DNA of 54,353 bases from a virus: the IMG/VR virus record IMGVR_UViG_3300028706_000007, positions 1-54,353 of that record. The stretch is one strand, 5' to 3'. The notes beneath the pieces were generated by a model. The model worked only from the letters and a program-made list of their open reading frames with translations, was not told the DNA's origin and made no database searches. Positions 6,050 to 34,700 of the stretch are shown here, in pieces. The position numbers and the translations under genes are program-made. The first letter of the stretch is position 1; every line of letters starts with the position of its first letter.

Positions 6050-9000
6050 TTATGAGTTCAATTGGGTAGATGTTAATGCATCAATGACCATAATATCATT
6101 GACAGTAGCAGCACTTACGAATATTTCATTAGGTGCTGATTTAATCTCATATAAATCACCAAATGAACCATTGGATGCATTGGGTGTAATAACTACTGAC
6201 CCAATCACATCACCAACTTTATCATGTAAATATGCTGCTAATTCTGAAAAATAAAATGTTTCTCCAAAATCCCAATTACTAATACTAAAGTATTCATTCA
6301 TTGCTGAAATAACGCGGCTTTTTATCTCATTATTGCTCGCCATTGAACCTTGTAATTTAACTACTTTTATAGTAGCTTGCAATCCACTCTCTGCTTTATC
6401 ACCAAACAATGGTTTAAAATCAACGCTATTCATTACTATATTATCACTAATCATTTTATAATCTTCTAGTGATTTATACGCAACAGTCAATTCATCAATT
6501 GATGGTTTTACTGGTTCGGTGATTGTATTAGTAGTATCGTTTATGTAATTGGTATAATCTGTGTAGTAAGCAGATGTTACTAGGAACATATCAATGATAT
6601 TCGATATCCCTGGGTTTATTCTTCTTGTTTCTGGGCTGTTATGTCTATATTGGAATTGTAAATCTTGTCTACCAGTTTTTGCTAGATACCCAGGATACCC
6701 AGTAATCTCACTAGTACTAGTAGCACTACTATCAACTTGGTAGAACTTAGCATCAGTATAAGCATATACTACTTCACCCCCCGAAAATGCTGTTAAATCA
6801 ACATCAATATCTGCTTTGACTGCATATACAGATGTATTAACAATAGCATCACTTGCTAGTGGTATAGCACGAGTTAAATTATCTGCATCGGTTACTGTTT
6901 GGAAAAATACTTTTTGTTGTGTTAAATCTACAACATCATTAGTAACCACCGTATCAAAGAAACTTGGGTTATCTGCTACGTTGTCATCATCAAAATCTGA
7001 AAAACTAACTAGTACTTTATAATCTTCAGCATACCCATCAACTTCGACAGGTTGACCTACTATATCCATTTTAACATCATTCGTTAACCTAGAATTAGTT
7101 GCTGGTTGTGAATTGGTTTTTAGTATACTGATGTAATCATTGACTACTTTCCCTGTTCTTGGGTCATATATCTTCCGATTATCACCATAGAAAAAACGTG
7201 TTTCTTTCACACTTGAGAAGTAATAATTTAATACCTTTGTCGTAACTGTGTATATATTATTCACAGTTTCAAACTTTGTGATCCAATTATCACTAGTTAA
7301 ATTTGCTTCACTTACTAGATTCCATTCCGCTGTCGTATTATCATACTGAATTCCAAAATTACGGTATAGTTCGATTTGTCCTAGTATTACCTGTTCAAAT
7401 TCAATTGATAAATCAGTATTATACACAGCATATACCTGTGTTGGTACAGCATCTGTTGGGATATAATCTGTTAATGTTACTGCGCCAATCCCATCTGCGT
7501 CTGTGCCTGAACCAAAATTAGTACCATCAAGTACAACATTAGATATACCTGACCATATTTCAAGTTTATCGGTATCTAAAGTTGGTGTGCCATTTTGCAA
7601 TCTGTTGTCTTTATCAAAATAATATCCTGTTTGGGGTTCAAATTTTATTACACACCCTTTAACAAAATACTTTAAGTTATCTGTGGTATATTCACCAATT
7701 TGCAATGCATTGCTACTTGAATTTTCAAAATACCCAGTAGTTTGGTTTGTGCTTGTTGTACTAAAATGCCATTTAACATCCACCGATGTTAATGAATACG
7801 GTAAATTATTCTCATAATAACGATGGACTGCGTTACGCTGTACTATTTTAGGTTCTACTTGATTCCTAATCACGGATTCAATGTCATTTGTATCAACAAA
7901 TGCGAATGTGAATGCTTCTTCATCTGTATCTTTGTATAGCATACCATCACTGTTGAATGTGTTGATGCTTGAATACTTACCAGTTGGGTCTACCAAATCT
8001 AAATATCTGCTAGCACCTATGTTTGTTCTGTTTATTGCTTTGCTTTTCATCACACTGTTGAATGTAGCATACGGGAAGTTATTATAGTCTTCACCGTTCA
8101 CCATTCTATTTTGTGTATAGAACTTGGCTGGCGCTCTTCGTTTAATATCAGCCAAACTTTCCTTTGCTCTTGCATTATTGATATTCTCGGTTAAACTAAC
8201 AGTAAATGTAGCTGTTTCTAATCTATTTGTTCTGCTAACATACGGAACTGTTAGTTGAATGCTTGAAATATCTTCCTTATTGATGATATATTCTAATCCA
8301 TTGGAATTCCGCACCATTGCTCTATATGTGCCTACTGGTATATTACCAAATACGCCATCACCAAAGTTCAATGTAACCTGATCATTAGCCCTATTAGATA
8401 TACTATACAACCTTCTGTGACCAACCCCATCCTGTGAATTGTTAGTTGCATATATATTCTCTACACCTGCCCATTCATATGCTATGTTACCCAATGCATT
8501 TAGTTCATATACCCAAACATCATCACCATTGATACCATCCACATCTACTTCTACTTGTCTATTTGAAATACGATCAGACAATACAAAATCTTTATTTGAT
8601 AATGTTCCTTGTTTAAAATAAAAGAAATACCCAGTATTCTTACTAGCAAACCCCAATGTATCATTGCGGTATAACAAATTAAATTCATTATTCGCTTTTG
8701 GTGCTGGTTCATATATATATGGTTCGCCAGCAGAAGTGGCATTCACTGCCTCAAAATTCATACTTATACCATCAACAGATGCGCTAAATGGGATTACAGG
8801 CAATACACCATCGGGTATCTTGATACTGTATTCGCTAGTACTAACATTTAAGATATCTGCTGTTCTTCCAGGAACACCTGCTTTCTGGCTATCTACTAGG
8901 ATGGCATTTATTATTGTATTAAATTGTTCTTGCCAATCAATATTGGTTCTGTCATTCCAACGCACAGTCACATTACTAAGACTACTATTATTATAATCAT

Positions 9001-9388
9001 AGATGTTTTCGGTCGTACTAATTGAAGTGACCTTTATGTATCCTGATGATGCTTGATTTCGTTTTGGCTGATAACCTACCAGATTAGCTAATTTAACCAC
9101 ACTATCTCTGCGTTCTGCTGTATCTAGAAAGTTTTCTCTCGTGTTTAAGTCTTGTCTAAAACTAATACCTTGACCCATAAATGCCATTAAATCTATCAAT
9201 GCAATGAATTCTGAACTTTCAACAAAATCGTTAAAACTCTCTGGATGATGTTGTTTTAGATAATCTATGAAACTTTTTCTTAGTGTTTCAAAATTATAAC
9301 TTTGGAAGTCAGCTTGGTTGTATGTTTTGTATATACTTTTCCAATCTTCTGTGCCAAATATTGTACTGTGTTTTGATGTAGTCGCCAT
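6050..9388 (-). CDS. 6: Baseplate wedge protein gp6-like
   Basis: 1112 residues. The N-terminal 120 residues (FGTEDWKSIYKTYNQADFQS, then SFIDYLKQHHPESFNDFVES, then a GQGISFRQDLNTRENFLDTA stretch) are the hallmark of the T4 gp6 / baseplate J family, which forms the iris ring of the wedge and links neighbouring wedges around the hub. T4 gp6 is about 660 residues, so this one is much longer; the middle part (about 450-900) is a beta-rich expansion. The C-terminus carries the family-like ending with SAMNEYFSISNWDFGETFYF and a VIGSVVITP segment. The next gene begins one base after its stop. Upstream lie a palindrome and a TAATAAATA late-promoter-like box, so it may have its own late transcript as well as operon read-through. 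Confidence 0.92.
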   Translation of the reverse strand: MATTSKHSTIFGTEDWKSIYKTYNQADFQSYNFETLRKSFIDYLKQHHPESFNDFVESSEFIALIDLMAFMGQGISFRQDLNTRENFLDTAERRDSVVKLANLVGYQPKRNQASSGYIKVTSISTTENIYDYNNSSLSNVTVRWNDRTNIDWQEQFNTIINAILVDSQKAGVPGRTADILNVSTSEYSIKIPDGVLPVIPFSASVDGISMNFEAVNATSAGEPYIYEPAPKANNEFNLLYRNDTLGFASKNTGYFFYFKQGTLSNKDFVLSDRISNRQVEVDVDGINGDDVWVYELNALGNIAYEWAGVENIYATNNSQDGVGHRRLYSISNRANDQVTLNFGDGVFGNIPVGTYRAMVRNSNGLEYIINKEDISSIQLTVPYVSRTNRLETATFTVSLTENINNARAKESLADIKRRAPAKFYTQNRMVNGEDYNNFPYATFNSVMKSKAINRTNIGASRYLDLVDPTGKYSSINTFNSDGMLYKDTDEEAFTFAFVDTNDIESVIRNQVEPKIVQRNAVHRYYENNLPYSLTSVDVKWHFSTTSTNQTTGYFENSSSNALQIGEYTTDNLKYFVKGCVIKFEPQTGYYFDKDNRLQNGTPTLDTDKLEIWSGISNVVLDGTNFGSGTDADGIGAVTLTDYIPTDAVPTQVYAVYNTDLSIEFEQVILGQIELYRNFGIQYDNTTAEWNLVSEANLTSDNWITKFETVNNIYTVTTKVLNYYFSSVKETRFFYGDNRKIYDPRTGKVVNDYISILKTNSQPATNSRLTNDVKMDIVGQPVEVDGYAEDYKVLVSFSDFDDDNVADNPSFFDTVVTNDVVDLTQQKVFFQTVTDADNLTRAIPLASDAIVNTSVYAVKADIDVDLTAFSGGEVVYAYTDAKFYQVDSSATSTSEITGYPGYLAKTGRQDLQFQYRHNSPETRRINPGISNIIDMFLVTSAYYTDYTNYINDTTNTITEPVKPSIDELTVAYKSLEDYKMISDNIVMNSVDFKPLFGDKAESGLQATIKVVKLQGSMASNNEIKSRVISAMNEYFSISNWDFGETFYFSELAAYLHDKVGDVIGSVVITPNASNGSFGDLYEIKSAPNEIFVSAATVNDIMVIDALTSTQLNS

Positions 9389-9410: not shown

Positions 9411-9428
9411 ATAATATGCGTATATTAT
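9411..9428 (-). terminator. Palindrome plus T-run upstream of gp6
   Basis: ATAATATGCGTATATTAT is a near-perfect palindrome followed on the minus strand by five Ts and then a TAATAAATA box. It lies between the SGNH hydrolase gene and gp6. A nearly identical element lies at 10361-10378. The fold resembles a weak intrinsic terminator, but the stem is AT-rich, so termination is uncertain. Confidence 0.45.
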
Positions 9429-9430
9429 GA

Positions 9431-10342
9431 TTAAAACCGTTTTTTTGGGATTGCCGTTTTAAATTTGGTTACTTCGTGATTCAGTACCATATCATCCCAT
9501 TTACAAGCATAATCTTTCTGTTTATCGGTGATACTGACACCTACCTTTTGCAAGTATTCTAAATGTTCATTCGGGGTAGGATGCACATCCTGTCGTTTGG
9601 TGTTGATATTATCTCTCCTCGTTACAAGTTGAAAATCATTTTCAATTTCATCCATTATTTCTTGACTAATATTACCACAATCGTTGTTGTAAAAGTTACC
9701 GAAGGATGGCCAGTCTACTCCTGCACATTTGTTATATGTTAATCTTAACTGATCAATCGCATCTGGTATTGCCATTTTAATAACAACATCATCCCTGGAA
9801 TGAAAATCATTATCGAATATTATCTCACACACACTAGGACTTATTACATCAATGGTGTCGCTAAACAGCGATGCTATCTTACTTTCTAGTGATAATTTAA
9901 AAGTTAACTGTTTGTGCGAATCATCGACCATAGAAAACGGTACAATTTTAAACATCTTATAATTGCACCCAATATTGTCCAATGTTTGCTTAACCATTTC
10001 AATTAGTGCCATATTCGTCAGAAGATACCCATCAGGGTCAGTGTAGTTGTCCACAAATTCTTGTGAATATGATGAATTATACACACTACCTGGCGTAACC
10101 CATTTATTTTTTAAATACCTATCCTCACGCCCAATGGATGTCCACATAATCATAACGGTGTCGTCCACGTTTATATTATTTCGTTTTATACATTCGGCCA
10201 ATGAGTACATTATGAAATGATTACCGCCACCTGGTCGCCCCCAATTTTCAAAAAGGTCATATTCTTGGCTTAATATGTCAGCCCATGTTGGCCACATATA
10301 TGATGTGAAGCTACACCCAAAAGTAAATAAACGGTTAGTCAT
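9431..10342 (-). CDS. SGNH/GDSL-like hydrolase in baseplate operon
   Basis: 303 residues. The SGNH-fold blocks are visible: block I as FTFGCSFT near residues 6-13 with the nucleophile Ser, a GRPGGGNHF segment near 36-44 carrying the block III Gly/Asn, and block V as DVHPTPNEH near residue 250 supplying the Asp-x-His pair. Enzymes of this fold cleave esters, often acetyl or acyl groups on sugars or lipids; the substrate is not predictable here. There is no signal peptide or membrane segment. It sits between an accessory gene and gp6 and is flanked on both sides by near-identical palindromes, with TATAAATA directly upstream of its ATG on the minus strand. A virion-attached esterase acting on the host surface is one reading; a cytoplasmic modifying enzyme is another. 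Confidence 0.75.
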   Translation of the reverse strand: MTNRLFTFGCSFTSYMWPTWADILSQEYDLFENWGRPGGGNHFIMYSLAECIKRNNINVDDTVMIMWTSIGREDRYLKNKWVTPGSVYNSSYSQEFVDNYTDPDGYLLTNMALIEMVKQTLDNIGCNYKMFKIVPFSMVDDSHKQLTFKLSLESKIASLFSDTIDVISPSVCEIIFDNDFHSRDDVVIKMAIPDAIDQLRLTYNKCAGVDWPSFGNFYNNDCGNISQEIMDEIENDFQLVTRRDNINTKRQDVHPTPNEHLEYLQKVGVSITDKQKDYACKWDDMVLNHEVTKFKTAIPKKRF

Positions 10343-10357: not shown

Positions 10358-10360
10358 AAA

Positions 10361-10378
10361 TAATATGCGCATATTATG
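10361..10378 (-). terminator. Perfect 18-bp palindrome upstream of SGNH gene
   Basis: ATAATATGCGCATATTAT is a perfect palindrome, followed on the minus strand by TTTTT and then TATAAATA. The same block, with one base changed and a similar flank, lies at 9411-9428, so the SGNH gene is bracketed by two copies. It could be a terminator-then-promoter junction or a scar of cassette insertion. Confidence 0.5.
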
Positions 10379-10380
10379 AT

Positions 10381-10896
10381 CTATACTAGATGCATTGTTT
10401 CTACTTGCATATCGCTAGGTAAATTAGTTTTATCTAAATTCGGTGTATTTCTAATGTATAAATTATTGCCTACTATTAAATTATTGCCTATGTGTGTTAT
10501 CGGTGTATCATCAAGGACTAAATCATCGTACACCTCCAAATTATTAGGCAAATGAGTTATTTGTGTACGTCCAATGAATAAACTCCCACGCACTGTCAAA
10601 TTATCAGGTAAATGCGTTATTTGTGAACCCAGCGCGAGTATATCCCAACCTACTTCTGTGATATTAGATAAGTGGGTTACTTGTGTATGTGTAATGTTTA
10701 ACGACCCATTAACTACAGTTATACCGACAGGTAATTGCTGAACGAGATTAAAAGGGAATTCCGAGAAATCAATACTCCCAGTATTATTATCCGTAATGCG
10801 TTCACACATCTCTAGTGTTGGATTGGCATATTCCATACGTAATATTTCATATCCATATAATGCCTCTGGGTTTGTGTGGTATTCGTATAAATTCAT
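10381..10896 (-). CDS. Short leucine-rich-repeat protein with MNLY tag
   Basis: The start chosen is ATG 10896 (MNLYEYHTNPEALYGYE), because GGAGG lies nine bases upstream and the first residues match the starts of the two genes before it; a frame extending to 10920 is unlikely to be the true start. The product is 171 residues. After about 60 residues it has four to five repeats of about 20 residues of the type LPxNLxVxGxLxIxxTxITH, a short leucine-rich repeat that would form a small solenoid. The start overlaps the previous stop in an ATGA. No catalytic motif. Its role is unknown; repeat solenoids of this kind usually bind other proteins. Confidence 0.75.
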   Translation of the reverse strand: MNLYEYHTNPEALYGYEILRMEYANPTLEMCERITDNNTGSIDFSEFPFNLVQQLPVGITVVNGSLNITHTQVTHLSNITEVGWDILALGSQITHLPDNLTVRGSLFIGRTQITHLPNNLEVYDDLVLDDTPITHIGNNLIVGNNLYIRNTPNLDKTNLPSDMQVETMHLV

Positions 10897-11342
10897 TTTA
10901 TAAATCCTCCGTTGATCCATTTAATAATACTAGGTTTGCGTCCAAGCCACGCATCCTCGGATGATGGGTCATCGTGATTGCTTTTATTTGCTAAAGCTGA
11001 CAACTCCTCCAAATCAAATCGGTCAAAGGCTGGATTTGTATTTCTCTGCTTCATCAATCGTTCAGCAATCAGCACCACGTAATATCCATTGTTCCAATGA
11101 TCTTCAAAATCAGTCACTATACTGCGCAATAGATTTGCGAATTCAGGCCAAATAACTTCTTCAGTCCATTCATGCTCGGCAAAATAGGAATCAGTTAAAT
11201 GTATTATCCCATCAAATTCATCTTGCTGCACCCAGTTCAATAATTCACTAACATATTCGTTATACCTTGATAATGGTATCTTGATCCTATCTTTATAGCC
11301 ATATAATGTCTCTGGATTTGTGTGTTTGCTGTATAAATTCAT
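10893..11342 (-). CDS. Hypothetical protein with MNLY tag
   Basis: 149 residues from ATG 11342, preceded by AAGGA, two bases after the previous gene's stop. The first 19 residues (MNLYSKHTNPETLYGYKDR) are identical to the start of the gene before it and close to the start of the gene after it; the frame extending to 11441 is rejected for that reason. The rest is mostly helical and acidic, with many aromatic residues (HEWTEEVIWPEFANLLRSIV), and matches no family I know. Its stop overlaps the next start. It belongs to the accessory island between gp25 and gp6. Function unknown. Confidence 0.7.
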   Translation of the reverse strand: MNLYSKHTNPETLYGYKDRIKIPLSRYNEYVSELLNWVQQDEFDGIIHLTDSYFAEHEWTEEVIWPEFANLLRSIVTDFEDHWNNGYYVVLIAERLMKQRNTNPAFDRFDLEELSALANKSNHDDPSSEDAWLGRKPSIIKWINGGFIK

Positions 11343-11344
11343 CG

Positions 11345-11995
11345 TTATAGTGTCCTTACGAATCCTTGATATCCAACTGCATATTTTGGATCTTTCATTA
11401 TATATGGTTCGGCTTCGGGCCATCTTCCGTTTATTACCCACTTAGCATACAGATATGCAGAATATGGATCTTTCATTATATATGGTTCGGCTTCTGTCCA
11501 TTCATCTTTTATGACCTCATTAGCATACAGAAATGCAGAAGATGGATCTTTCATTATATATGGTTCGGCTTCTAGCCATCTTCCTTCTATTACATACCTA
11601 GCATAAAAATATGCATATTTTGGATCTTTCATTATATATGGCTCGGCTTCTGGCCATTCATCTTCTATTACATACTCAGCATAAAAATATGCATATTTTG
11701 GATCTTTCATTATATATGGTTCTGCTTCTGACCATCGGTTTCCCATTACCCCACCAGCATACTCATATGCATAATATGGATCTTTCATGATGTAAGGTTC
11801 TGCTTCTTTCCATCTGCCTTCTATTACATCTCTAGCATACAGAAATGCATATCCAGGATCTTTCATTATATATGGTTCTGCTTCTTTCCAGTTACCTGTT
11901 AGTCTTGCTTCTTCATATGCGAATGATGGGATTTCAAACCTATCTTTATAGCCATATAATGTCTCTGGGTTTGTGTGTTTGCTGTATAAATTCAT
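11345..11995 (-). CDS. 26-residue tandem-repeat protein with MNLY tag
   Basis: 216 residues. It starts MNLYSKHTNPETLYGYKDR, then carries about seven tandem repeats of 26 residues with the core EAEPYIMKDPxYAxxYAxxV and a linking I-x-x-x-W. The regular pattern of Ala/Tyr heptads suggests paired helices, that is, a helical solenoid. Similar EAEP-type repeats occur in some phages and large viruses, without known function as far as I recall. At DNA level the unit is 78 bp. The ATG overlaps the gp25 stop (ATGA), so it is co-translated with a baseplate wedge gene. No enzyme motif. It might be a virion accessory or an intracellular binding protein. Confidence 0.75.
   Translation of the reverse strand: MNLYSKHTNPETLYGYKDRFEIPSFAYEEARLTGNWKEAEPYIMKDPGYAFLYARDVIEGRWKEAEPYIMKDPYYAYEYAGGVMGNRWSEAEPYIMKDPKYAYFYAEYVIEDEWPEAEPYIMKDPKYAYFYARYVIEGRWLEAEPYIMKDPSSAFLYANEVIKDEWTEAEPYIMKDPYSAYLYAKWVINGRWPEAEPYIMKDPKYAVGYQGFVRTL
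11388..11935 (-). repeat. 78-bp tandem repeats inside the 26-residue-repeat gene
   Basis: The string GGATCTTTCATTATATATGG or a close variant recurs every 78 bases, starting at 11388, 11466, 11544, 11622, 11700, 11778 and 11856 on the plus strand. Each unit encodes one 26-residue protein repeat. The strong DNA identity in the middle of each unit suggests recent duplication or ongoing slippage. Confidence 0.9.
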
Positions 11996-12366
11996 CGGAC
12001 TATAGCATCCCCGGAATCTTGGTCAAACAACACCCTAATCTGTTCTGTATCAACCCCAGGAAGTATTATTACATCCAACGATAACACCATCCCATTATGC
12101 TGTGAATGATAATTAACGTCCTCTAACACAATCCTCGGATCAGTGTTAATCAACCGTTCAATTTCCGAAGTTACTCTTCGTTCAACATCAACCGTATTAG
12201 GTTCAAACAAGTAGTTCCATATAGTCGTACCGTATTCTGGCTTACCAGGTAATTCTCCTTCTCTGATATTCAACATATTAGTTAAATTACGAACCACTAA
12301 CTCTCTATCAGTCAATGTAAATTTTTTGTGTTTGCTTATTGTGCTGAAACCTTTATACATATTCAT
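11992..12366 (-). CDS. 25: Baseplate wedge protein gp25-like
   Basis: 124 residues, close to T4 gp25 (132). It carries the family pattern: an N-terminal SKHKKFTLTDRELVVRNLTN, then IREGELPGKPEYGTTIWNYL, and a C-terminal EDVNYHSQHNGMVLSLDVI segment. Gp25 is the conserved sheath-initiating wedge protein found in myophages, type VI secretion and other contractile systems. In T4-like phages it usually lies directly before gp6; here four accessory genes separate them. Its start is preceded by TTAAATAAG, a late-promoter-like box, and its stop overlaps the next start. Confidence 0.93.
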   Translation of the reverse strand: MNMYKGFSTISKHKKFTLTDRELVVRNLTNMLNIREGELPGKPEYGTTIWNYLFEPNTVDVERRVTSEIERLINTDPRIVLEDVNYHSQHNGMVLSLDVIILPGVDTEQIRVLFDQDSGDAIVR

Positions 12367-12372
12367 ACTTAT

Positions 12373-13320
12373 TTAATTGAAATTAATATTATTGGGCCGA
12401 ATGGATTGAATCACATTCGTATCATGTTCTAGTAAAATATTAACAGGGATGTAATTAGTTGGCAAGTATAACACCAAAGTACGATCAGCTGCCACGGTGA
12501 TATTATCAGCAGTCATTGAATTAGTATCAATCGCATCAATGTACCGCCTATCATACTGCACAAATCCAGTTGTTCTTTTGGAATTAAGTTTATTATGTGG
12601 TTTTACTATAGTTGTCATCTCATATGGCGGAATCATATGGTCTTCGTTCATAACTAGGTTTTCACACATAGATATATCTAAAAACCCATTTATCGTTAAA
12701 TTAGATATAGGTGGTGATACTATTGTCGCATATGGAGAATGTCCAAATCCTATGGGAACACACCTATTCTCTTCAACATTGTATTGTTCATACCCGACAA
12801 TACATCCGTCTGTGTCAAATACCGGATTAATAACTTCCTCGTATATTACCCCTGGTATTAATCTACTGCTATAAATCTCAGGCGGATATTCTTTTAATCT
12901 TACCAATGAAGTGTTAGATGCATCCAGATACCCATTAACTTCGTCTAAATTATATGGCAACGAGGATATATGATCGCACCCAGATATATCTAAGTACCCA
13001 TCAAACTTCAACGATGTAGGTATTTGCTCAATTAAGGTATTGGATAAATTTAAATATCCATTCACCACCAAATTCTCAGGCAATGCTCTAATCGGTACAT
13101 ATCTTAAATTTAGACCACCATTTATCGTTAAATCACATGGCAATGATTTAATCGATGTGCCAGTCAAATTTAAATCCCCATCAACAGTCAACCCTTCGGG
13201 TGCTGTGCCATGTATTATCATATTAACTATATCCGATGAATCAGATGTAGGTTCTGCTGTTTCAAGGGGGTCACTGATTACTAATTCTGAATTCCATAAC
13301 CTTTTTATTTTTAGACTCAT
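12373..13320 (-). CDS. Leucine-rich-repeat protein between gp5 and gp25
   Basis: 315 residues from ATG 13320 (MSLKIKRLWNSELVIS), chosen because GGAG lies seven bases upstream and the ATG follows the gp5 stop after one base. Residues about 50-160 and 205-225 carry about seven repeats of the type LTVxGxLNLxxTxIxxLPxx, a leucine-rich solenoid. An insertion near residues 168-190 contains DTDGCIVGY followed by NRCVP, a two-cysteine motif also present in the gp48-like protein of this operon. The C-terminal 80 residues are not repetitive. It lies inside the core baseplate operon and is probably virion-associated or a baseplate accessory; no function is known to me. Confidence 0.72.
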   Translation of the reverse strand: MSLKIKRLWNSELVISDPLETAEPTSDSSDIVNMIIHGTAPEGLTVDGDLNLTGTSIKSLPCDLTINGGLNLRYVPIRALPENLVVNGYLNLSNTLIEQIPTSLKFDGYLDISGCDHISSLPYNLDEVNGYLDASNTSLVRLKEYPPEIYSSRLIPGVIYEEVINPVFDTDGCIVGYEQYNVEENRCVPIGFGHSPYATIVSPPISNLTINGFLDISMCENLVMNEDHMIPPYEMTTIVKPHNKLNSKRTTGFVQYDRRYIDAIDTNSMTADNITVAADRTLVLYLPTNYIPVNILLEHDTNVIQSIRPNNINFN

Positions 13321-13321
13321 T

Positions 13322-14695
13322 TCAATACTCCGGCGGTGGTACTTTGCCATTATTTATTATATTTACTATTTCTTCATCAATAGCAGTTCGTGGGAATTGT
13401 TTCCTAACATCAATGCCACTACGATCCCCATACGGCTCGTGAGTCGGCGCTTTGGTAACAATACTATCAATCTTTTCAGGATCAGATACCCATTTTTTGT
13501 CATATTTCACATCAGCAAACTTCGTGAGCGGGATCGACGCAACAGATAATGTAGGTGCATCTTGCCAATCAATCCTTGGTGCTACAACCGCATAATTCCC
13601 GCCAGCGTTGGTAGTTGTTTGTCCACCAGAAACGGTAGCAATAGTGCCATCACTCTTTACACCTATCTTCATCGTTGATTCAATCGTCACTGACTCTTTG
13701 CCTTTTATATTAAAATCTCTGCCAGCATACATATTAATATCATCCTCTGCATGTAAATTAATACTCCCCTCCGTCCGAACATTCACACTATTAGAACTAT
13801 ATAAATCAACAGTTCCTTCTTTGCCAAATTCTAACCACGATTGTCCATTAGCATGCGTAATATAAAAAGTATCACCATCATCACTCATCGTGATTTGATG
13901 CCCTTTGCTAGTTCTAATGCGAATATGCTGACTCTTGCCCTCTAAATCCCCATCATCCATCACAAAAGTGTGTCCTCCACGTCTACCAATGACTTTCATA
14001 TCATCCAATTCAACTGTATCAGATTCTAATTCCTTTTTAATCTCGTTGTCTTTGTACCCAGCAGCATATACTGGTCTGCCGGGTGTGCTTATACCATAAA
14101 CGGTACTTGGACTCTCTCGTTGGGCAGAAGAGTTAATCGGCCCACGAATCGCATCATCTTCCAAACCCTGTTGATGCATTGTTGACTCAACAGATGTATG
14201 CTTTGGCTTTTCTAAATCATAAAATCTCGGATCTTCATTCATCTCCTTGTTTTTATGGTTTATCGTGGTTTCATTATTAGCAATACCAGGAACCATATTC
14301 AATAATTCAACAGATGGGATACATCCTACATAATACCCATAGTTTGGATCACCGTTCACGAAAAAACACAATACCTTTATACCAACATCAGGAGGTGTAA
14401 ACCACATCCCATACGAATTACTGTTACCAGGATATGTGCCAACATCCTCAGTTGTTCCTGAATGGGGTGTTTCCCCATAGAACGGAGACATATAACTCAC
14501 CGTCCTCCATCCAGTTGGGTCTTTTTTATCTAATTTACTGAACCCTTCTATGTATACTTGCAATCGTCCTGCACGAACTGGATCATTGTTATACATTACT
14601 TCGGCTATAAATGGACCACGATCAGACAATGATGCATTGCTATCGGTTCTAAATACACGCCCCCCACCTTTATTACTTGCTATATTATCTGGCAT
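13322..14695 (-). CDS. 5: Baseplate central spike protein gp5-like (no lysozyme domain)
   Basis: 457 residues. Residues about 26-110 form the OB-fold (RGPFIAEVMYNNDPVRAGRL, then a PNYGYYVGCIP segment) typical of gp5/VgrG proteins. Residues about 235-340 form the repetitive spike beta-helix (HQITMSDDGDTFYITHANGQ, then SINLHAEDDINMYAGRDFNI). T4 gp5 has a lysozyme domain between these; here that region (about 150-230) is too short and no lysozyme motif is visible, so cell-wall cleavage must come from elsewhere. The start overlaps the upstream stop as TAATG. It forms the cell-puncturing spike on the hub. Confidence 0.9.
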   Translation of the reverse strand: MPDNIASNKGGGRVFRTDSNASLSDRGPFIAEVMYNNDPVRAGRLQVYIEGFSKLDKKDPTGWRTVSYMSPFYGETPHSGTTEDVGTYPGNSNSYGMWFTPPDVGIKVLCFFVNGDPNYGYYVGCIPSVELLNMVPGIANNETTINHKNKEMNEDPRFYDLEKPKHTSVESTMHQQGLEDDAIRGPINSSAQRESPSTVYGISTPGRPVYAAGYKDNEIKKELESDTVELDDMKVIGRRGGHTFVMDDGDLEGKSQHIRIRTSKGHQITMSDDGDTFYITHANGQSWLEFGKEGTVDLYSSNSVNVRTEGSINLHAEDDINMYAGRDFNIKGKESVTIESTMKIGVKSDGTIATVSGGQTTTNAGGNYAVVAPRIDWQDAPTLSVASIPLTKFADVKYDKKWVSDPEKIDSIVTKAPTHEPYGDRSGIDVRKQFPRTAIDEEIVNIINNGKVPPPEY

Positions 14696-20032: not shown

Positions 20033-20932
20033 TTGCCACGTAAAAGAAATTATTTAAACAACAAAGATATACTAACACAAATTCATTTAAGTAAAAATTC
20101 ATATTGTACATTTATTAACCCAGCAGAGGATAATATGTATGATTTAATTTTGGAAGACGCAAACAAAATTAATATTAGAACCCTAAAACAAGCAAGGGAA
20201 GATCGTGCTAAACGATTGTCAAAGGAATCAGGGGAAATAATAGACCCAAAAACTATAACAAATCAAGATATCATTATCAGAATAATGACAACCGAACATA
20301 TTCCGCTTGTTCCAAAAAGAAAACAAAAATCACAACCAAAATCACAAAAAGAAAGTATTAATGATGTATTATCGTTGGTAGACCCAGACTTATCAGATGA
20401 CATCATTGAATGCGATGACAATGATTGCCCAGATGATGTGGAAATGGCACCAATGAAATGTGGATTTCCAGCATTTTTTCATTATAGAATAGATGAGAAT
20501 AAAGAACCTTACATAGTAGGAAAAAGCCATTGGAAAGGTAGTTTAAAGAACGGTGAATTTAATATGCAGCACGGCAGAGTAACAGATGAGTTAGCTAAAA
20601 TGTATATGAAACTATGCGAAAGATATGCTACAAGAAGCAATTGGCGTGGATACACATACAATGATGAAATGCGAGGACAAGCATTAGTGCAATTATCGCA
20701 GATCGGATTGCAATTCAACGAATTTAAAAGTCAGAACCCATTTGCTTACTATACTGCTGTTATTACTAATTCTTTTACTAGAATCCTAAATAATGAAAAG
20801 AAAATGCAAAATATCAGAGATGACATTTTAGAAGAAAATGGTTTAGATCCGAGCTGGACGAGGCAAATGGCAAATGATGCAGAAATTGAAGAATCAAGAA
20901 AAAATAGAGTTAAACAACTTAATATCCCGTAA
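20033..20932 (+). CDS. 55: Late-transcription sigma factor gp55-like
   Basis: 299 residues from TTG 20033. That start is preferred over ATG 19997 because AAGGAGAGG lies just before it, the ATG lies upstream of the expected transcript start, and the protein then begins PRKRNYLNNKDILTQI, which resembles starts of other gp55 proteins. The conserved sigma-2-like core is SNWRGYTYNDEMRGQALVQ near 200-220 and NPFAYYTAVITNSFTRILNN near 235-255. T4 gp55 is 185 residues; the extra length is an acidic, Lys/Gln-rich insert near 85-130 with a DDNDCPDDVE stretch. Gp55 directs RNA polymerase to TATAAATA late promoters, which are frequent in this window. Its last 59 bases overlap the next gene. Confidence 0.9.
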   Translation: MPRKRNYLNNKDILTQIHLSKNSYCTFINPAEDNMYDLILEDANKINIRTLKQAREDRAKRLSKESGEIIDPKTITNQDIIIRIMTTEHIPLVPKRKQKSQPKSQKESINDVLSLVDPDLSDDIIECDDNDCPDDVEMAPMKCGFPAFFHYRIDENKEPYIVGKSHWKGSLKNGEFNMQHGRVTDELAKMYMKLCERYATRSNWRGYTYNDEMRGQALVQLSQIGLQFNEFKSQNPFAYYTAVITNSFTRILNNEKKMQNIRDDILEENGLDPSWTRQMANDAEIEESRKNRVKQLNIP

Positions 20933-22610
20933 ATACTTAACAGTAAAACATATCAAAGAAAGTTGCTTTGGGGATATAACTTTTCCCAAAGCAATTAGCA
21001 ATGCTAGGCAAATATTATGGCATATTAGCAATAGCATTGATTCAGTGCCATTATGTCCTGTTTGTAGTTCTGAACTTGGATGGCATCCTGACAAAAGAAG
21101 ATACCGTGATTTTTGCAGTCAGAAATGCACTGGTATAGGAACTAAAGAAAAAGCAGTACAAACATCCAAAGACAATAATGGTGGTGTACACCACACACAA
21201 ACACAAGAATATAGAGATAAAGTAAAAGAAACCTCATTAAAAAGGTTTAATACAGAACATTATAGCAAAACTAGTGAATATCACCAACGAGTGATAAGTT
21301 CAAATTTAAAAACATTTGGGGCAGAATACCCTGCACAATCATCGACTGTATTAGACAAAATGAAATCAACCTCAGTGGAACGATTTGGTGTTGATAATTA
21401 CGCAAAAACCGATGAATGTCGCAATAAAACAGTTGCTACTAATTTAGAACGATATGGATTCGCAAATCCAACGCAGAATGCAGATATCCAATCAAAAACC
21501 AGATCAACCAATTTTGATCGCTATGGGGCAAATTACCCAACACAAAATGAAGCCATAATGACAAAAATAGTGGACACTCGCAGAAAAAACTACTACAGCG
21601 AAGACACATTAAGAAAACTAAATGATATTGATTGGTTATCAAATGAACAAAAAACGAGAACTATACAATCAATAGCAGGGGGGTTGGACATCAGCCCTTC
21701 AAATTTAGGAAAATTCTATATGAACTACCGAATTCCTATCACCAACGTTAATCCTCATACATCAGATGCTGAAAAAGAAGTGGTTGCTTTTATTCAAACA
21801 TTGGGTATTACAAACATCATACAGAATGATAAAACCACAATAAGTCCAAAAGAGCTAGACATATTAATACCAGATCACAACTTAGCAATTGAATTCAATG
21901 GCACTTACTGGCATACACAAGGAAAAGGAAAAGATAAACAATACCACCTATCAAAAACAACGGCTTGTGAGTCTAAAGGCATTCAATTATTACATATATC
22001 TGATTTTGAATGGAGTAATCCAGTATCCCAATCAATTTGGAAAAGTATGATTTCGGTTCGTTTACAAAGAGCTAATAGAATATATGCTAGGAAATGCAAA
22101 TTAAAAGAAGTATCAACCAAGGATGCAACTCAGTTCATGAAGAACAATCACTTAGAAGGATTTGTGGGTGGTGGGATTAAATTGGGATTATATCATCGTG
22201 ATATATTAGTCCAATGTATCATCGTTGGCAAGTCTAGGTTTAACAAACGATATCAGAATGAGTTAATTCGTTCTGCAACATTGGTAAATACCGTAGTCAT
22301 CGGAGGATTAAGTAGATTAATCAAAAACATAAAAGGGTCATTAATTTCGTATGCCAATCGTAAGTATGCGAACGGCAAGGGTTATAATGCAATCGGGATG
22401 GTCCAACAGCAGAGCAGTCCCCCAAATTATGTAGTCACTACCAAAAATGGATTAATCGTAGGGTCAAGATATAAGTTCCAAAAACACAAACTAGATAATT
22501 TATTGGATAAATTTGACCCCAATATGTCAGGGTGGTCTAACATTCAAGCGAATGGATATGATCGCATATGGGATTGTGGGAATTTAGTATATACATTGAA
22601 TGCAAAATAG
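20874..22610 (+). CDS. Vsr-type homing endonuclease overlapping gp55
   Basis: Up to 578 residues. A zinc-finger-like set C61/C64 and C81/C85 comes first. Five degenerate repeats of about 30 residues follow (T-N-L-E-R-Y-G-x-x-N-P-T-Q-N type, residues about 110-240), then a short helical DNA-reading part. The nuclease core near 325-380 has ELDILIPDHNLAIEFNGTYW, then H, and LLHISDFEW, matching the Vsr-like (EDxHD) homing endonuclease fold. The C-terminal domain (about 400-578; YARKCKLKEV, FMKNNHLEGFVGG, GYDRIWDCGNLVY) is shared with the second such gene in this window. The frame starts 59 bases inside gp55; the true start is uncertain because no good ribosome site is visible. Such genes spread by cutting phage lacking them. 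Confidence 0.85.
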   Translation: MMQKLKNQEKIELNNLISRKYLTVKHIKESCFGDITFPKAISNARQILWHISNSIDSVPLCPVCSSELGWHPDKRRYRDFCSQKCTGIGTKEKAVQTSKDNNGGVHHTQTQEYRDKVKETSLKRFNTEHYSKTSEYHQRVISSNLKTFGAEYPAQSSTVLDKMKSTSVERFGVDNYAKTDECRNKTVATNLERYGFANPTQNADIQSKTRSTNFDRYGANYPTQNEAIMTKIVDTRRKNYYSEDTLRKLNDIDWLSNEQKTRTIQSIAGGLDISPSNLGKFYMNYRIPITNVNPHTSDAEKEVVAFIQTLGITNIIQNDKTTISPKELDILIPDHNLAIEFNGTYWHTQGKGKDKQYHLSKTTACESKGIQLLHISDFEWSNPVSQSIWKSMISVRLQRANRIYARKCKLKEVSTKDATQFMKNNHLEGFVGGGIKLGLYHRDILVQCIIVGKSRFNKRYQNELIRSATLVNTVVIGGLSRLIKNIKGSLISYANRKYANGKGYNAIGMVQQQSSPPNYVVTTKNGLIVGSRYKFQKHKLDNLLDKFDPNMSGWSNIQANGYDRIWDCGNLVYTLNAK

Positions 22611-23635: not shown

Positions 23636-25764
23636 TTAAATTCAAAAACTTAACAATAAAAAACTTCATGAGTATCGGAAATGCTACTCAGGCAATATCA
23701 TTGGATCGTACCGATTTAACATTAGTACTCGGTGAGAACCTAGATCTAGGTAGCAATGGGTCAAGAAATGGTGTTGGAAAAACATCTCTCATTAATGCAT
23801 TAAGCTATGCATTATACGGTGGTGCATTGACCAATATCAAAAAACCCAACCTAATAAATAAAACAAATGTAAAAAATATGTTGGTTAGTATTGATTTTAC
23901 GAAAGACAATAAAGCCTACAGGATAGAGCGAGGAAGAAAACCGAATGTGCTTCGATTCTTTATTAATGATGAAGAACACATGGATGATGACGCACAAGGT
24001 GATAGCAGAGAGACACAGATGTTAATTACCTCTGTATTAGGGTTAAGCCATGCAATGTTTAAACATATAGTAGCACTCAATACATACACTGTGCCATTCT
24101 TAAATCTTAGCGTGAAAGACCAACGTGAAATTATCGAAGAACTGATGGGGATCACTCTTTTATCAGAGAAAGCACTAATGCTGAGAGATGAAATCAAGGA
24201 ATCAAAAGATATCATCAAAGAAGAAGATATTATCATTGCAACTATCAGTAACACCAATGCAAAGATACAAGAACAAATCACAAGCATAAAGATAAGCGAA
24301 ACTGAATGGGATACATCTCATATTGATACCATTGCTAGTTTATCCAATGATATAAAGGATTTGCAATCAATAGATATTGACGGCGAGATCAATAATCATG
24401 GGCTAGTAGATGAATGGAACATTGAACAAGATGAATTGAAACATATACTTAGTGTTGAATTGGAGGAATATAACCAACTAACTGATCAACTTCAAAAGCA
24501 ATACATCACCGATTTAGCTGAGTACAACAATGTAAAAGATTTACATCAGAAGCAATACAATGATGAGTTGGGGAACTACAACACATTATCTCGTGATGAA
24601 GCAGATGCACATCAGCTAATGGTTACAGCATTACAATCCACCTACACTGATCAGCTACAAGAGTTTGAGTCATATGAAAGTATGTTAACTGTGTACAACG
24701 ATAAACATAATGACCTCGAAGTATTAAATCAACAAAAAAGTGAGGTGTCTAATAACATTACAATTACCCAAGGTAATAAATGTCCATTATGCAAGCAAGA
24801 TGTTGATGATCACAACCACACCGACTTACTGAAAAAGTTATCAGATGAGTTAAGTGTCATAGAGGATAAAATGGATACTCTCTCTGATGCCATATCGGAG
24901 TTAGAAACCACTATCACTAGCACAAATGAAGTTATTAGACCGAATGAACCTATTTTACCTGAATTAACTAGTGAACTCACTAAACCGACACTAACTGCAT
25001 TAGGTGTTGATATTCCAACACTAACAAAACCGAAAATAAGCAAACCTGTAATGGGGATTGGTAAAACTAAACCAATAACATTATATGATACATTAAAGCA
25101 AGCACTAGAACATAAAAATTTACTTGGTAATTTACAGGTCAAGTTAGCAGACGAAGAAAAAGAGCCTAATCCATATACCATTCAAGTCAAGGACATGGAG
25201 ACTAATCTAATACAAACAATTAATTACGATATCATCAATGAAACAGCGATATTACTAGATCATCAGGATTTCTTGTTAAAATTACTTACCAATAAGGATA
25301 GTTTTATTCGTAAATCCATCATTGAACAAAATTTAGGATATCTGAATACTAGGTTATCATTTTATACGGCTAAAATTGGGTTACATCAGGAAGTCAAGTT
25401 CATTAATGATTTATCTGTTGAAATCACAGAAATGGGGCAGGATTTAGATTTTGATAATCTATCACGAGGCGAGCGTAATCGAGTTATATTATCATTAAGT
25501 TGGTCATTTCGTGATGTATGGGAGAGTTTATACACACCAATTAATGCTATTTTCATTGATGAAGTCATAGATTCTGGGATGGATGCAATCGGTGTTGAGA
25601 ACAGCTTATCTATTCTCAAAGGAATGGCACATGAACGACAAAAGAGTTTATGGTTAATTAGTCATAAAGATGAACTAGCTAGCAGAGTAAATAATGTATT
25701 AACTGTTACGAAAGAAGATGGGTTTACTACATTCAACGACGGGGAGCAATATGATGCCATTTAA
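23632..25764 (+). CDS. 46: Recombination endonuclease ATPase subunit gp46-like (Rad50/SbcC type)
   Basis: 710 residues; T4 gp46 is 560. The Walker A is SRNGVGKT (K50, T51), the zinc-hook C384-P-L-C387 lies mid-protein between two long coiled-coil-prone arms, the ABC signature LSRGERN is near residue 610, and Walker B AIFIDEVIDS follows. The arms hold a repeated YNxLxxQ/QKQY pattern near 275-340. The protein is the ATPase partner of gp47, clamping DNA and controlling the nuclease. It overlaps gp47 by four bases and the following radical-SAM gene by about ten bases, which indicates coupled translation. The extra length lies in the coiled coil, which is variable in this family. Confidence 0.95.
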   Translation: MIKFKNLTIKNFMSIGNATQAISLDRTDLTLVLGENLDLGSNGSRNGVGKTSLINALSYALYGGALTNIKKPNLINKTNVKNMLVSIDFTKDNKAYRIERGRKPNVLRFFINDEEHMDDDAQGDSRETQMLITSVLGLSHAMFKHIVALNTYTVPFLNLSVKDQREIIEELMGITLLSEKALMLRDEIKESKDIIKEEDIIIATISNTNAKIQEQITSIKISETEWDTSHIDTIASLSNDIKDLQSIDIDGEINNHGLVDEWNIEQDELKHILSVELEEYNQLTDQLQKQYITDLAEYNNVKDLHQKQYNDELGNYNTLSRDEADAHQLMVTALQSTYTDQLQEFESYESMLTVYNDKHNDLEVLNQQKSEVSNNITITQGNKCPLCKQDVDDHNHTDLLKKLSDELSVIEDKMDTLSDAISELETTITSTNEVIRPNEPILPELTSELTKPTLTALGVDIPTLTKPKISKPVMGIGKTKPITLYDTLKQALEHKNLLGNLQVKLADEEKEPNPYTIQVKDMETNLIQTINYDIINETAILLDHQDFLLKLLTNKDSFIRKSIIEQNLGYLNTRLSFYTAKIGLHQEVKFINDLSVEITEMGQDLDFDNLSRGERNRVILSLSWSFRDVWESLYTPINAIFIDEVIDSGMDAIGVENSLSILKGMAHERQKSLWLISHKDELASRVNNVLTVTKEDGFTTFNDGEQYDAI

Positions 25765-27526
25765 ACTAGCAAATATCACCGAATACCAATTAGAAATTAC
25801 ATCAGGGTGCAATGCTAGTTGTCCACAGTGCCCTAGAAATATTAACGGGGGTAATGTGAACCCATATTTAGATGTATCACACTTATCACAATACGCAATT
25901 GAAACTGCATTTACTAAAGAAATATGTGAATCTACCAAACGAATATTTTTTTGCGGTAGTTATGGCGATCCCATTGTTCATCCCGACTTCTTAGCTATTT
26001 TAGCAGCCTTTAGAAGAAAAAACCCAACACTATGGTTGTTTATACACACCAATGGCAGTGTCCACAACGCATCATATTGGAAAAAAATGGCAGGTATAAT
26101 AGGTGATTATGGTCACATTGACTTTAATATTGATGGATTAGCTGATACTAACCATATATACCGTAGAAATACCGATTTTAATACAATCATAGACAATGCC
26201 CAAACATTTATTAATAATGGGGGTAAAGCAAATTGGAACTTTATAGTGTATAAACACAACGAACACCAAGTCGATGAAGCACGGTTGTTATCTTCCATAA
26301 TAGGTTTCAGCGAATTCAAAACAAGGTCTACTGGGCGGTTTTTAAACCATTGCACAATGGAAGAAATGGATGGATGGCCTATAGAAAATAGATTAGGTGA
26401 ACAAGTAGGTATACTGGAGGTTCCACTCAATGAAGAATACCACAATAAAAGTTTAGCGGCGTTGCCTAAACTCAAACAAGAAACCAATATATCAGAATAT
26501 TTCAACAATACACGCATCCAGTGTGATGCACTAAACGAACACAACGCAAATAATGATTACAACAAAAAAGATGAAGGCAAAGTATTAATAAATGCTGATG
26601 GGTGGGTAATGCCTTGTAATTTTTTCAATCATAATTTACATGATGCTAGATTCCACGACCGGTATATACTTCCAGGTAGCAATGATTTAAGTTTTTTGCC
26701 AAACGGAAAGAACCAAATACAAGATCTCTTTAGCAGACACAATGCAAAATCAGAGTTGAATATTAACCATACTTCATTGCATAACATATTTCAAAATAGC
26801 TTCTGGGATGAAATTACCGATGGGTTTGATAAAAATATCAATGATGGTCGCATATTCGAATGTGCCATGACATGTGGTGAAGAATTGCACAAAGTATGGG
26901 ATCAGGTTCCTCCTTCGACACCAGCATTCTTGATAACCGGTGGCAATAGAGGATTAGGATTAGAAATAAAAAATAATTTCAATGGAACATCAATTGCTAG
27001 GTCAGAAGACAACGATATCATGGCAGATATAACTAGTAATAGTGATTTAGAACGCATAGCATTGGAAAGTTTAAAGTATGATGTTTTTGTGAATTGTGCG
27101 TTTGATGGGCCACCTGGTGAAGAATGGACTAATTTCGCCCAAGTTAACCTACTAATAAAAATATATGACATTTGGAAAGAAAATAATAAAGAAGGTCACA
27201 TAATAAACATTGGTAGCATCGGTGAAAAGAATATAGTCGCACCAGAACCAACATTCGAACGGTATAGAATAGCAAAATCAGCATTAGCACATGCTAGTAA
27301 ACAGTGCACCAACGCATTTAAGAACGATTTTGTTAAATTCAGAACAAGTTTATTATCCATTGATAGGCTTGATACACCCATTACTAGGTCAAATAAATCA
27401 TGGACGGGTAATGGATTAGATTGCGGTGATGTAATAAAATCCATAGAATATATTTTAAGCATAAACAGTAATACATGCATTGAAGAAATAGTTTCATGGG
27501 TAAATTACAAATACAAAGGCACGTAA
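25754..27526 (+). CDS. Radical-SAM / short-chain dehydrogenase fusion
   Basis: 590 residues from ATG 25754; an adjacent ATG at 25751 is also possible. GGGGAG lies seven bases upstream, inside the end of gp46. Residues 1 to about 380 form a radical-SAM enzyme: C19-x3-C23-x2-C26 within SGCNASCPQCPR for the iron-sulfur cluster, and later cysteines in GWVMPCNFF and ECAMTCG that resemble a SPASM-type auxiliary cluster site. Residues about 388-590 form a short-chain dehydrogenase: LITGGNRGLGLEI for the nucleotide, a central NCAF in place of NNAG, INIGSIGEKN with the catalytic Ser, and YRIAKSALAHASKQ with the Y-x3-K pair. Both halves keep their key residues. The substrate is unknown; peptide, sugar or nucleotide modification are all possible. 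It is the last gene before a non-coding region. Confidence 0.82.
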   Translation: MPFKLANITEYQLEITSGCNASCPQCPRNINGGNVNPYLDVSHLSQYAIETAFTKEICESTKRIFFCGSYGDPIVHPDFLAILAAFRRKNPTLWLFIHTNGSVHNASYWKKMAGIIGDYGHIDFNIDGLADTNHIYRRNTDFNTIIDNAQTFINNGGKANWNFIVYKHNEHQVDEARLLSSIIGFSEFKTRSTGRFLNHCTMEEMDGWPIENRLGEQVGILEVPLNEEYHNKSLAALPKLKQETNISEYFNNTRIQCDALNEHNANNDYNKKDEGKVLINADGWVMPCNFFNHNLHDARFHDRYILPGSNDLSFLPNGKNQIQDLFSRHNAKSELNINHTSLHNIFQNSFWDEITDGFDKNINDGRIFECAMTCGEELHKVWDQVPPSTPAFLITGGNRGLGLEIKNNFNGTSIARSEDNDIMADITSNSDLERIALESLKYDVFVNCAFDGPPGEEWTNFAQVNLLIKIYDIWKENNKEGHIINIGSIGEKNIVAPEPTFERYRIAKSALAHASKQCTNAFKNDFVKFRTSLLSIDRLDTPITRSNKSWTGNGLDCGDVIKSIEYILSINSNTCIEEIVSWVNYKYKGT

Positions 27527-31759: not shown

Positions 31760-34700
31760 ATGTCATGGAAAAAATATTTTAAAGCAGCAGATAATACCGG
31801 TGTAATGAGTCCTATTAGTGGGGCGCAAGGTGGTAAGTTCGGATTTAAGAACTATCAAAGTAGGTTACCAGAAGTTTATTCAGGACATCCAAATCGTGTT
31901 AATCGTTATAATCAGTACGAAGCAATGGATATGGATAGTGAAATAAGTGCTTGTTTAGATATTATTTCAGAGTTTAGTACACAAGACAATGATCAAAATA
32001 GCACACCATTTGATGTTGATTACCACGAGAAACCAACTGATAATGAAGTCAAACTCATTGAACAGAATTTAAAACAATGGTGTAAATTAAACCAATTCAA
32101 AAAACGTATATTTAAGTTATTCAGGAATACACTAAAATATGGAGATCAGGTATTTCTCCGTGACCCAGAAACATTTGAATTATTCTGGGTAGACATGTCC
32201 AAGGTTGGGCGTGTTATTGTTAATGAAAGCAAAGGCAAAGAACCAGATCAATACATAATACAAGATATTAACCCTAATTTTGAAAATTTATCAGTGGCAA
32301 CAAAAACCACAGATGATTTTGGAATTACACCAATGTCTGGCGGTATTTCTCCACAACAACAACAAGTGTCAAATCCGGTGGCTGGTGAAGGAACACGCTT
32401 CGGTGCTGCACAAAGAGAAACAACAGTAGATGCTAAACATATTGTTCATTTAAGTTTAACCGAAGGATTAGACTTGAATTGGCCTTTTGGTACAAGTATT
32501 CTTGAAAATATTTTCAAAGTATACAAACAAAAAGAACTATTGGAAGATGCTATTCTAATATATCGCGTTCAACGTGCGCCTGAACGAAGAGTATTTTACA
32601 TCGATGTAGGTAATATGCCATCACATATGGCAATGAGTTTTGTTGAACGAGTTAAAAATGAAATCCACCAACGTAGAATACCAACCCAATCAGGCGAGGG
32701 TGATAATATGTTGGATGCTACATACAATCCATTATGTATTGATTTAGAAACAAGAATACCATTGTTAGATGGAAGAACCCTGACATTACAGCAAGTTATA
32801 GCAGAATATAATGATGGTAAGGAAAATTGGGTATATAGTGCAGATCCTGTATCGGGTAAAGTAGTACCAGGTGAAGTGAAATGGGCTGGTGAAACACGTA
32901 AAAACACAGAAGTATTAAAATTACATTTAGATAATGGAGAGACATTAACTTGTACCCCAGATCATAAAATTCCAGTTTTGGGGAAAGGGTTTGTTGAAGC
33001 GAAAGACTTATCAATTAATGATAGTTTGATTTCATTTGAACATGCGGTTAAAAGCACAAATAAGATGACCAAACTTGTTCCCCTTCGTGAAACAATGGAC
33101 ACTGGGTGTTTAAATGTTGATAATGAATACCATACTTTTGCAATAGAATCAGGTATTTACATAAAAAATTCAATGCAAGAAGATTATTTTTTCCCGCAAT
33201 CAGCGGAAGGACGTGGTTCTAAAGTAGATACATTGCCAGGCGGGGACAATCTTGGTTGTTTTGCATTGGATACCAAAGTGAAATTATTAGATAACCGCAA
33301 TCTTAGTATTTCTGAAATAGAAGCTGAAATGAAGGATGGGAACGAGTTGTGGGCATATAGTTGTGATCCTATCACTGGAAAAATTGTGCCGGGATTGATA
33401 TCATGGGCTGGTAAAACAAGGTCAAATGCTAAAGTTCTTAAAATTGTATTAGATAATGGGGAAGAAATAGTTTGTACTCCTGATCATAAGATACCACTGC
33501 CAGGTATTGGGTTTGTTGAAGCCAAAGATTTAACAATTGGACAATCTTTGATTCCGTTGTATACAAAGAATAAAGAAATATCTAAGCATGCAAAACGTGA
33601 CTATGAAATGGTGTATGACAACGAATCTAAAAAGTGGGTATATACACATAGGTTAGTAGCGAAATACATGAGATCGAATGGATATTCTACTGAAAAGGTG
33701 TTTGATGAAGATTATATTTCAAGTTCAAAAAACACCATTCACCATAAGGATTTTAATCGTTATAATAACTCTCCTGCTAATTTAACATGGATGAACTTCA
33801 CAGATCATACATTGTATCATCAGGATAAAGGATTTTCAAAAGAAGCACAGGCATTGGGTACTCTCGCGGCAAGGGATAAAATGTATTATTTAAAAGAACA
33901 TGATCCCGAACAGTACAATGACATCATAAAACGACAAACACAGGGTAGATCACGATGGTATGAGTCGCTGACTAGTGATGAAATTGATGCACTTAATAAA
34001 AAACGGTCGGTGGGTGTGAAGAAATATTATAAAAATTTGACTAGTAATGAAAAAGAAGAGAGAAAGCAAGTCAGCCGAACTAATTGGTATAAAGGAACCG
34101 AAAAATTCTTAGCACTACTAACGGATGACACCTTTAGGCAAGAATATGGTAATAAAATCTCGGCAGGACAATCCAAATCAAAGATTGATAACCCTGAATT
34201 ATGGAAAAACCGAAGTGCAAAAATAACAGAAGCTAATATTATTAGATGGCAAACCGATGGGTACTATGATAGTGTATTTAAAGATCAAAAAATTAAGTTT
34301 AATTCTGATATGTATGAATTTGTGTCAACTCTGTATGTGACACATAAAGTAGAGCATGCCGGTGATTTCACGTCTATTATTGGGAATAATAGTACATTTA
34401 TGCAGATGTATGCTGCTGCGAATACTAAGGTTCATAGTAATACCAAGGTTGATAAATTCTCGGTTAGGCACTTGCACAAGTTATTAAAGCAAATGAATCA
34501 CACATGGGAATCATTTAAACTTATTCATTCTTACATTGTTCCCGATGATATATTGAATGATTTAATATCACAATATGATAATCAGATGTCACAGTATGAT
34601 TTTATCTCAAAGTTAAAAGATAATAATCATTTGTTGTCAAGTAGACATAAGGTTATTAACCATTTAAATAAATGTGGTATTGATAATTTCAAGACATTTA

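What the first reader, a model, noticed from the sequence alone, without database searches (positions are those of the whole stretch)
10840..11995. Three consecutive genes share one N-terminal tag joined to unrelated bodies
MNLYSKHTNPETLYGYKDR begins two genes identically, and MNLYEYHTNPEALYGYE begins the third. After the tag come 26-residue helical repeats, an unknown helical domain, and leucine-rich repeats. The matching DNA covers about 60 bases at each 5' end. A shared leader on different cargo suggests a docking or sorting signal, or a recombination handle that swaps bodies.
Basis: seen in the sequence. Interest (0 to 1): 0.72.

Follow-up and report, generated by a model that had tools for sequence, protein, structure and literature searches.

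The report
Shared N-terminal leader on swapped phage proteins
A giant T4-like phage from an uncultured sample puts the same 16-residue leader on the front of otherwise unrelated accessory proteins; the leader is preserved while the bodies change and are reshuffled, so it is probably an address label for that phage's cargo, much like the head-targeting leader of phage T4 but with a different sequence.

Summary
Three tandem genes (minus strand: 11995-11345, 11342-10893, 10896-10381) begin with the same ~16-residue leader, MNLY(SK/EY)HTNPE(T/A)LYGY. The DNA match runs from the ATG to codon 16-19; upstream and downstream sequence is near chance except where bodies are homologous. The bodies are a 26-residue-repeat alpha-solenoid, an unknown 130-aa domain and leucine-rich repeats. 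Related contigs carry the leader on at least two more unrelated bodies; one contig has six leader genes with four body types. The window is a giant T4-like phage (Rak2/Atu_ph07 kind). There the genes sit between baseplate genes 25 and 6, which abut in nearly all relatives, so this is an inserted accessory island. In one LRR pair, leader and body have equal synonymous divergence, but amino-acid change is four-fold lower in the leader: the peptide is under purifying selection. Leader variants follow neither body nor genome, so leaders and bodies are reshuffled. Best reading: a sorting/docking leader for accessory cargo, working like T4's capsid-targeting sequence but lacking its Leu/Ile-x-Glu cleavage motif. 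The recombination reading is complementary. What the leader binds and where the proteins go is unknown. New variant of a known kind.

The parts
11939..11995 (-). Leader 1: MNLYSKHTNPETLYGYKDR (57 nt from ATG)
   Evidence: 56 of 57 nt as leader 2
11345..11938 (-). Body 1: seven ~26-residue repeats (EAEPYIMKDPxYAYxYAxxVI), predicted alpha-solenoid
   Evidence: AlphaFold mean pLDDT 90.1; weak matches to PHROG families of unknown function
11286..11342 (-). Leader 2: MNLYSKHTNPETLYGYKDR
10893..11285 (-). Body 2: ~130-aa domain, no relative in Pfam, PHROGs, NCBIfam, PADLOC or PDB sequences
10849..10896 (-). Leader 3: MNLYEYHTNPEALYGY
10381..10848 (-). Body 3: leucine-rich repeats behind a helical N-cap
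   Evidence: AlphaFold mean pLDDT 86.9; Foldseek to PDB LRR proteins; 54% identical homologue with leader at L008:12810-13328
11992..12366 (-). Baseplate wedge gene 25, upstream neighbour; overlaps leader gene 1 by ATGA
   Evidence: GPW_gp25 E 4.9e-11, phrog_43
6050..9388 (-). Baseplate wedge gene 6, downstream of the inserted island
   Evidence: phrog_10646 E 1.5e-265; abuts gp25 in relatives
9431..10342 (-). Fourth gene of the island, no leader; SGNH-hydrolase-like by eye only
   Evidence: no Pfam match; a 31% identical homologue lies near the leader genes in L001 and L002
12364..13323 (-). Clean 960-nt presence/absence segment holding an unleadered LRR gene between gp5 and gp25
   Evidence: L010 is identical over 3706 nt before and 675 nt after and lacks exactly this segment

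Best explanation
The 16-residue N-terminus is a functional leader, a sorting or docking peptide, carried by a family of accessory cargo proteins of an uncultured giant T4-like phage lineage. Shown: one leader on at least five unrelated bodies, purifying selection on the leader peptide, leader-body reshuffling, and position in accessory islands (one inside the baseplate operon, one among genes with T4-like head-targeting leaders). Inferred: the leader binds one phage assembly component, such as scaffold/core, baseplate or another virion part, so that differing binding domains (solenoid, LRR, unknowns) are delivered to one place. Its ~50 nt of near-identical DNA also lets recombination put new bodies behind the same address.
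For: Leader on repeat, unknown, LRR, 253-aa and 88-aa bodies. In the LRR pair window/L008 the leader has pS 0.30 and pN 0.08 while the body has pS 0.35 and pN 0.32; the nonsynonymous contrast gives Fisher p = 0.0007, with no synonymous difference. Over all leader pairs pN is 0.12 and pS 0.31. Mean leader distance is 6.75 nt within a contig across bodies, 6.7 nt within a body across contigs and 8.0 nt otherwise. The leader is not part of the solenoid or LRR core (residues 1-20 pLDDT 57-66; residues 1-10 pLDDT 52). The contig with six leader genes is rich in CTS-like leaders: 5 of 21 genes against 6 of 619 in gp6 loci. LRR bodies in other phage contigs carry CTS-like leaders such as MIKLKKLLKEEN. 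T4 precedent: diverse internal proteins with only the capsid-targeting sequence conserved (PMC3012670; PMC5694885).
Against: No binding partner, location or proteomic datum. The leader lacks a T4-type Leu/Ile-x-Glu site. The window genes lie in the baseplate operon, not among head genes. The selection test rests on one gene pair and 16 codons. Synonymous divergence of leaders is also low, so part of the conservation is recent exchange. The CTS-like count uses a simple regular expression that I wrote.
Confidence: 0.5

Rival explanations
1. Passive 5'-end capture: the leader is only the start of an ancestral tandem-duplicated gene (probably the repeat gene), joined to other bodies by recombination and kept because it supplies a working start; it has no function as a peptide.
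For: Leader 1/2 DNA is nearly identical (50/51 nt) and head-to-tail genes overlap at start/stop. Identical runs of 79-195 nt connect different loci. Clean gene gain/loss next door.
Against: Lower amino-acid than synonymous change in leaders, and four-fold lower amino-acid change in leader than in body at equal synonymous divergence. The leader is kept across diverged LRR genes of 43-54% identity.
Confidence: 0.25
2. The leader is an N-terminal cap of the repeat solenoid (a degenerate half-repeat) retained as a structural cap on other bodies.
For: Visual likeness of NPETLYGY to the repeat's DPxYAYxY. In the LRR model residues 10-23 form one helix running into the N-cap.
Against: Leader-repeat similarity is not significant (score 21 against shuffled mean 16.5, p 0.135). 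Low model confidence at the leader start. Repeat proteins in L012/L013 and LRR proteins in L132-L148 do without it.
Confidence: 0.12
3. A nucleic-acid element: a translation enhancer, regulatory RNA or DNA recombination site that overlaps the first codons.
For: Sharp start at the ATG and high DNA identity, including agreement at synonymous sites such as TTA, CCA and TAC.
Against: Change is relatively more frequent at synonymous sites (pS 0.31, pN 0.12). A probable distant relative (L030) keeps the peptide with synonymous sites near saturation (pS about 0.8, pN about 0.2). No shared sequence upstream.
Confidence: 0.1

Closest known systems
T4 capsid-targeting sequence on internal proteins IPI-III and Alt
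   Same: Short N-terminal leader shared by otherwise unrelated, fast-changing accessory proteins of a T4-like phage; bodies differ while the leader is kept (PMC3012670, PMC5694885).
   Different: Different sequence; no Leu/Ile-x-Glu cleavage motif; the window genes are in the baseplate operon; bodies are repeat scaffolds; head packaging unknown.
SPN3US gp53/gp54 identical 15-residue propeptides
   Same: Giant phage head paralogues with an identical N-terminal propeptide (PMC5694885).
   Different: Those are paralogues with related bodies and Glu cleavage motifs (A-x-E, S-x-E); here the bodies are unrelated.
Tandem LRR paralogues with leader MIKLKKLLKEEN (contigs of L132-L136)
   Same: Tandem phage LRR genes with a shared leader in front of LRRs.
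   Different: All bodies there are LRRs, so leader and body are simply inherited together; the leader is CTS-like and unrelated in sequence.

Membership tests
T4-type capsid-targeting sequence (CTS) proteins | Short N-terminal leader conserved on proteins with unrelated bodies | tested here: met
T4-type capsid-targeting sequence (CTS) proteins | Prohead-protease site (Leu/Ile-x-Glu, cut after Glu) at the leader end | tested here: not met
   No Leu/Ile-x-Glu within the 16 leader residues. An invariant Glu11 in NPE or TPE exists, but Asn/Thr stands two residues before it. The Leu/Ile-x-Glu form is from my knowledge; cutting after Glu is in PMC5694885.
T4-type capsid-targeting sequence (CTS) proteins | Packaged in the prohead core and ejected with DNA | not testable with these tools
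   no isolate or proteome; no leader match in 50,697 phage records
Giant T4-like phages (Rak2, 121Q, Atu_ph07, SCTP-2 group) | T4-type baseplate genes gp5, gp25, gp6 and gp20 portal | tested here: met
   gp6 31-34% identical to these phages over 92-100% of its length
Leucine-rich-repeat proteins (gene 3) | LRR fold | tested here: met
   AlphaFold model and Foldseek matches to LRR structures such as 4tzh and 4nkg (best LRR hit E about 0.01); Pfam LRR models not reached

The most novel reading that the evidence does not exclude
A second virion-sorting leader, distinct in sequence and possibly destination (tail or baseplate) from the T4 capsid-targeting sequence, by which giant phages load a changeable set of binding-domain cargo into the particle or onto one assembly partner.
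Probability: 0.3. Interest if true: 0.75.

Novelty: new variant of a known kind. Interest (0 to 1): 0.5.

Why it matters
If the leader is a sorting tag, it flags a whole class of otherwise unrecognisable phage cargo by sequence alone, gives a short peptide that could be tested by GFP fusion, and shows how large phages can exchange cargo bodies behind a fixed address. Even if passive, it is a clear case of ongoing gene-body shuffling inside a normally rigid baseplate operon.

Tried and rejected
Database naming of the bodies: Pfam, PHROGs, NCBIfam, PADLOC and PDB gave nothing for the unknown bodies. The leader in phage isolates: none found. The leader in bacterial genomes: only chance matches. 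A looser leader pattern gave no further N-terminal member. Leader as half-repeat: not significant. L030/L032/L033 carries NLFKYHSNPEILYGYD about 21 residues into a 122-aa ORF near a tail-sheath-like gene; it is a probable distant relative but was found with a pattern that fixes seven of its residues, so I do not lean on it. L001 joins the window's gp25 side to another locus inside a 185-nt stretch identical in both; it may be a real recombinant or a misassembly, so it is not used as evidence of recombination. Eleven relatives' records, which are fragments, lack the leader pattern.

Full report
What is there. On the minus strand of the window, three genes follow gene 25 head to tail: 11995-11345 (216 aa), 11342-10893 (149 aa) and 10896-10381 (171 aa). 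They start MNLYSKHTNPETLYGYKDR, the same again, and MNLYEYHTNPEALYGYE. In DNA, leaders 1 and 2 agree at 50 of 51 positions over codons 1-17, and leader 3 agrees with them at 43 and 42. The 36 nt before the ATG agree at 9-14 positions. The 54 nt after codon 17 agree at 24 between genes 1 and 2 and at 8-11 with gene 3. So the shared stretch starts at the ATG and ends at about codon 16-19.

Is it more than chance? Yes. In 8,228 pairs of genes lying on the same contig, the only pairs that match at 12 or more of 16 N-terminal residues while matching at 3 or fewer of 36 residues further on carry this leader. A profile of the leader separates members (scores 64-77) from everything else (35 or less), and reversed sequences give none above 30.

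What follows the leader. Body 1 is a run of about seven 26-residue repeats, modelled as an alpha-solenoid with mean pLDDT 90. No solved structure matches at E 0.001 or better, so I call it a solenoid and name no family. Body 3 is an LRR protein with a helical cap. Body 2 has no recognisable relative. In both models the leader start has low confidence (pLDDT 52-66) while the bodies are confident, as expected of an appended peptide.

The leader elsewhere. Scans of IMG/VR with the proteins and with leader DNA patterns found some sixteen contigs from a few lineages. Contig 3300028277_000015 (L008) has six leader genes: three repeat proteins, an LRR protein 54% identical to gene 3, a 253-aa protein and an 88-aa protein, the last two with no convincing relatives. 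L009 has three repeat genes; L002 and its close copies have a repeat gene and an LRR gene. None of 50,697 isolate phage records has it, and bacterial genome hits are chance matches.

Where it sits. Gene 6 of the window is most like those of giant T4-like phages (Agrobacterium phage Atu_ph07, Salicola phage SCTP-2, Klebsiella phage K64-1, Escherichia phage 121Q), at 31-34% identity. In about 76 related IMG/VR loci, the gp25 and gp6 alignments are 53-93 nt apart, leaving no room for a gene. L044 has an HNH-like ORF there instead. The window has 2.6 kb and four genes in that gap. Next to it, L010 is identical to the window for 3706 nt and 675 nt but lacks exactly the 960 nt that hold an unleadered LRR gene between gp5 and gp25. 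Gene gain or loss here is thus current within one population.

Is the peptide or the DNA conserved? Over all leader pairs pN is 0.12 and pS 0.31. The cleanest test is the LRR pair of window and L008. Synonymous change is the same in leader and body (0.30 and 0.35) but amino-acid change is 0.08 in the leader and 0.32 in the body (Fisher p = 0.0007 for nonsynonymous, 1.0 for synonymous). The LRR body is changing fast while the leader is held. This favours peptide function over a bare recombination site. The test has only 16 codons and one pair, and was chosen after seeing the data.

Is there exchange? Leader distance does not depend on body or on contig: 6.75 nt for same contig and different body, 6.7 nt for same body and different contig, 8.0 nt for neither. 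Identical runs of 79-195 nt link loci that are otherwise different; one 79-nt run between L008 and L009 begins exactly at the ATG. Leaders and bodies are therefore being recombined, whether or not the leader is selected for that.

Most likely mechanism. I think the leader is an address peptide for accessory cargo (confidence 0.5). Shown: common leader, unrelated bodies, selection on the peptide, reshuffling, accessory-island position. Inferred: binding to one phage partner. Circumstantial support comes from the company it keeps. On the L008 contig, 5 of 21 genes begin with a T4-CTS-like leader against 6 of 619 in gp6 loci, and LRR bodies of other phages carry CTS-like leaders. In T4, the internal proteins are diverse with only the capsid-targeting sequence conserved (PMC3012670), and internal head proteins join the core through it (PMC5694885).

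Works like versus is. It works like a CTS in architecture. It is not filed as a CTS, because the Leu/Ile-x-Glu cleavage motif is absent from the leader. The invariant Glu11 leaves cleavage by a protease of different preference open. Head packaging cannot be tested here. The baseplate location allows a tail destination as well.

Verdict. It is a new variant of a known kind (shared leader on changeable cargo), of moderate interest, with the destination and partner as the open question.

Noticed in passing
31760-35479: The gp20 portal gene contains two intein-like splicing regions and an HNH-like stretch (Portal_T4, Intein_splicing x2, HNH_3).
   Followed up: partly
12364-13323 versus L010:3706-3707: Population presence/absence of one LRR gene, placed without target duplication just upstream of the gp25 start, after a GGAG-type ribosome-binding site.
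   Followed up: partly
9411-9428 and 10360-10377: Near-identical palindromes ATAATATRCGYATATTAT upstream of both gp6 and the SGNH-like gene; 0.01 expected by chance.
   Followed up: no
25718-27526: Radical SAM protein with a C-terminal part that looks like a short-chain dehydrogenase by eye (Radical_SAM only).
   Followed up: no
20874-22610 and 40327-41778: Two ORFs that look alike and resemble homing endonucleases by eye; only the first has a Pfam match (DUF7487).
   Followed up: no
L013:6608-7294 and 7869-8747: An unrelated phage contig has two 26-residue-repeat genes sharing another leader, MTLLDYDLKELIKNAKQSGAC.
   Followed up: no
L136:967-3871, L134:3902-6466: Tandem LRR genes sharing a CTS-like leader MIKLK(K/Q/E)(I/L)LKE(E/D) in other phages.
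   Followed up: partly
45907-52059: Long minus-strand ORFs rich in Val and Pro, probably the antisense of a large repetitive structural gene on the plus strand that runs off the window.
   Followed up: no
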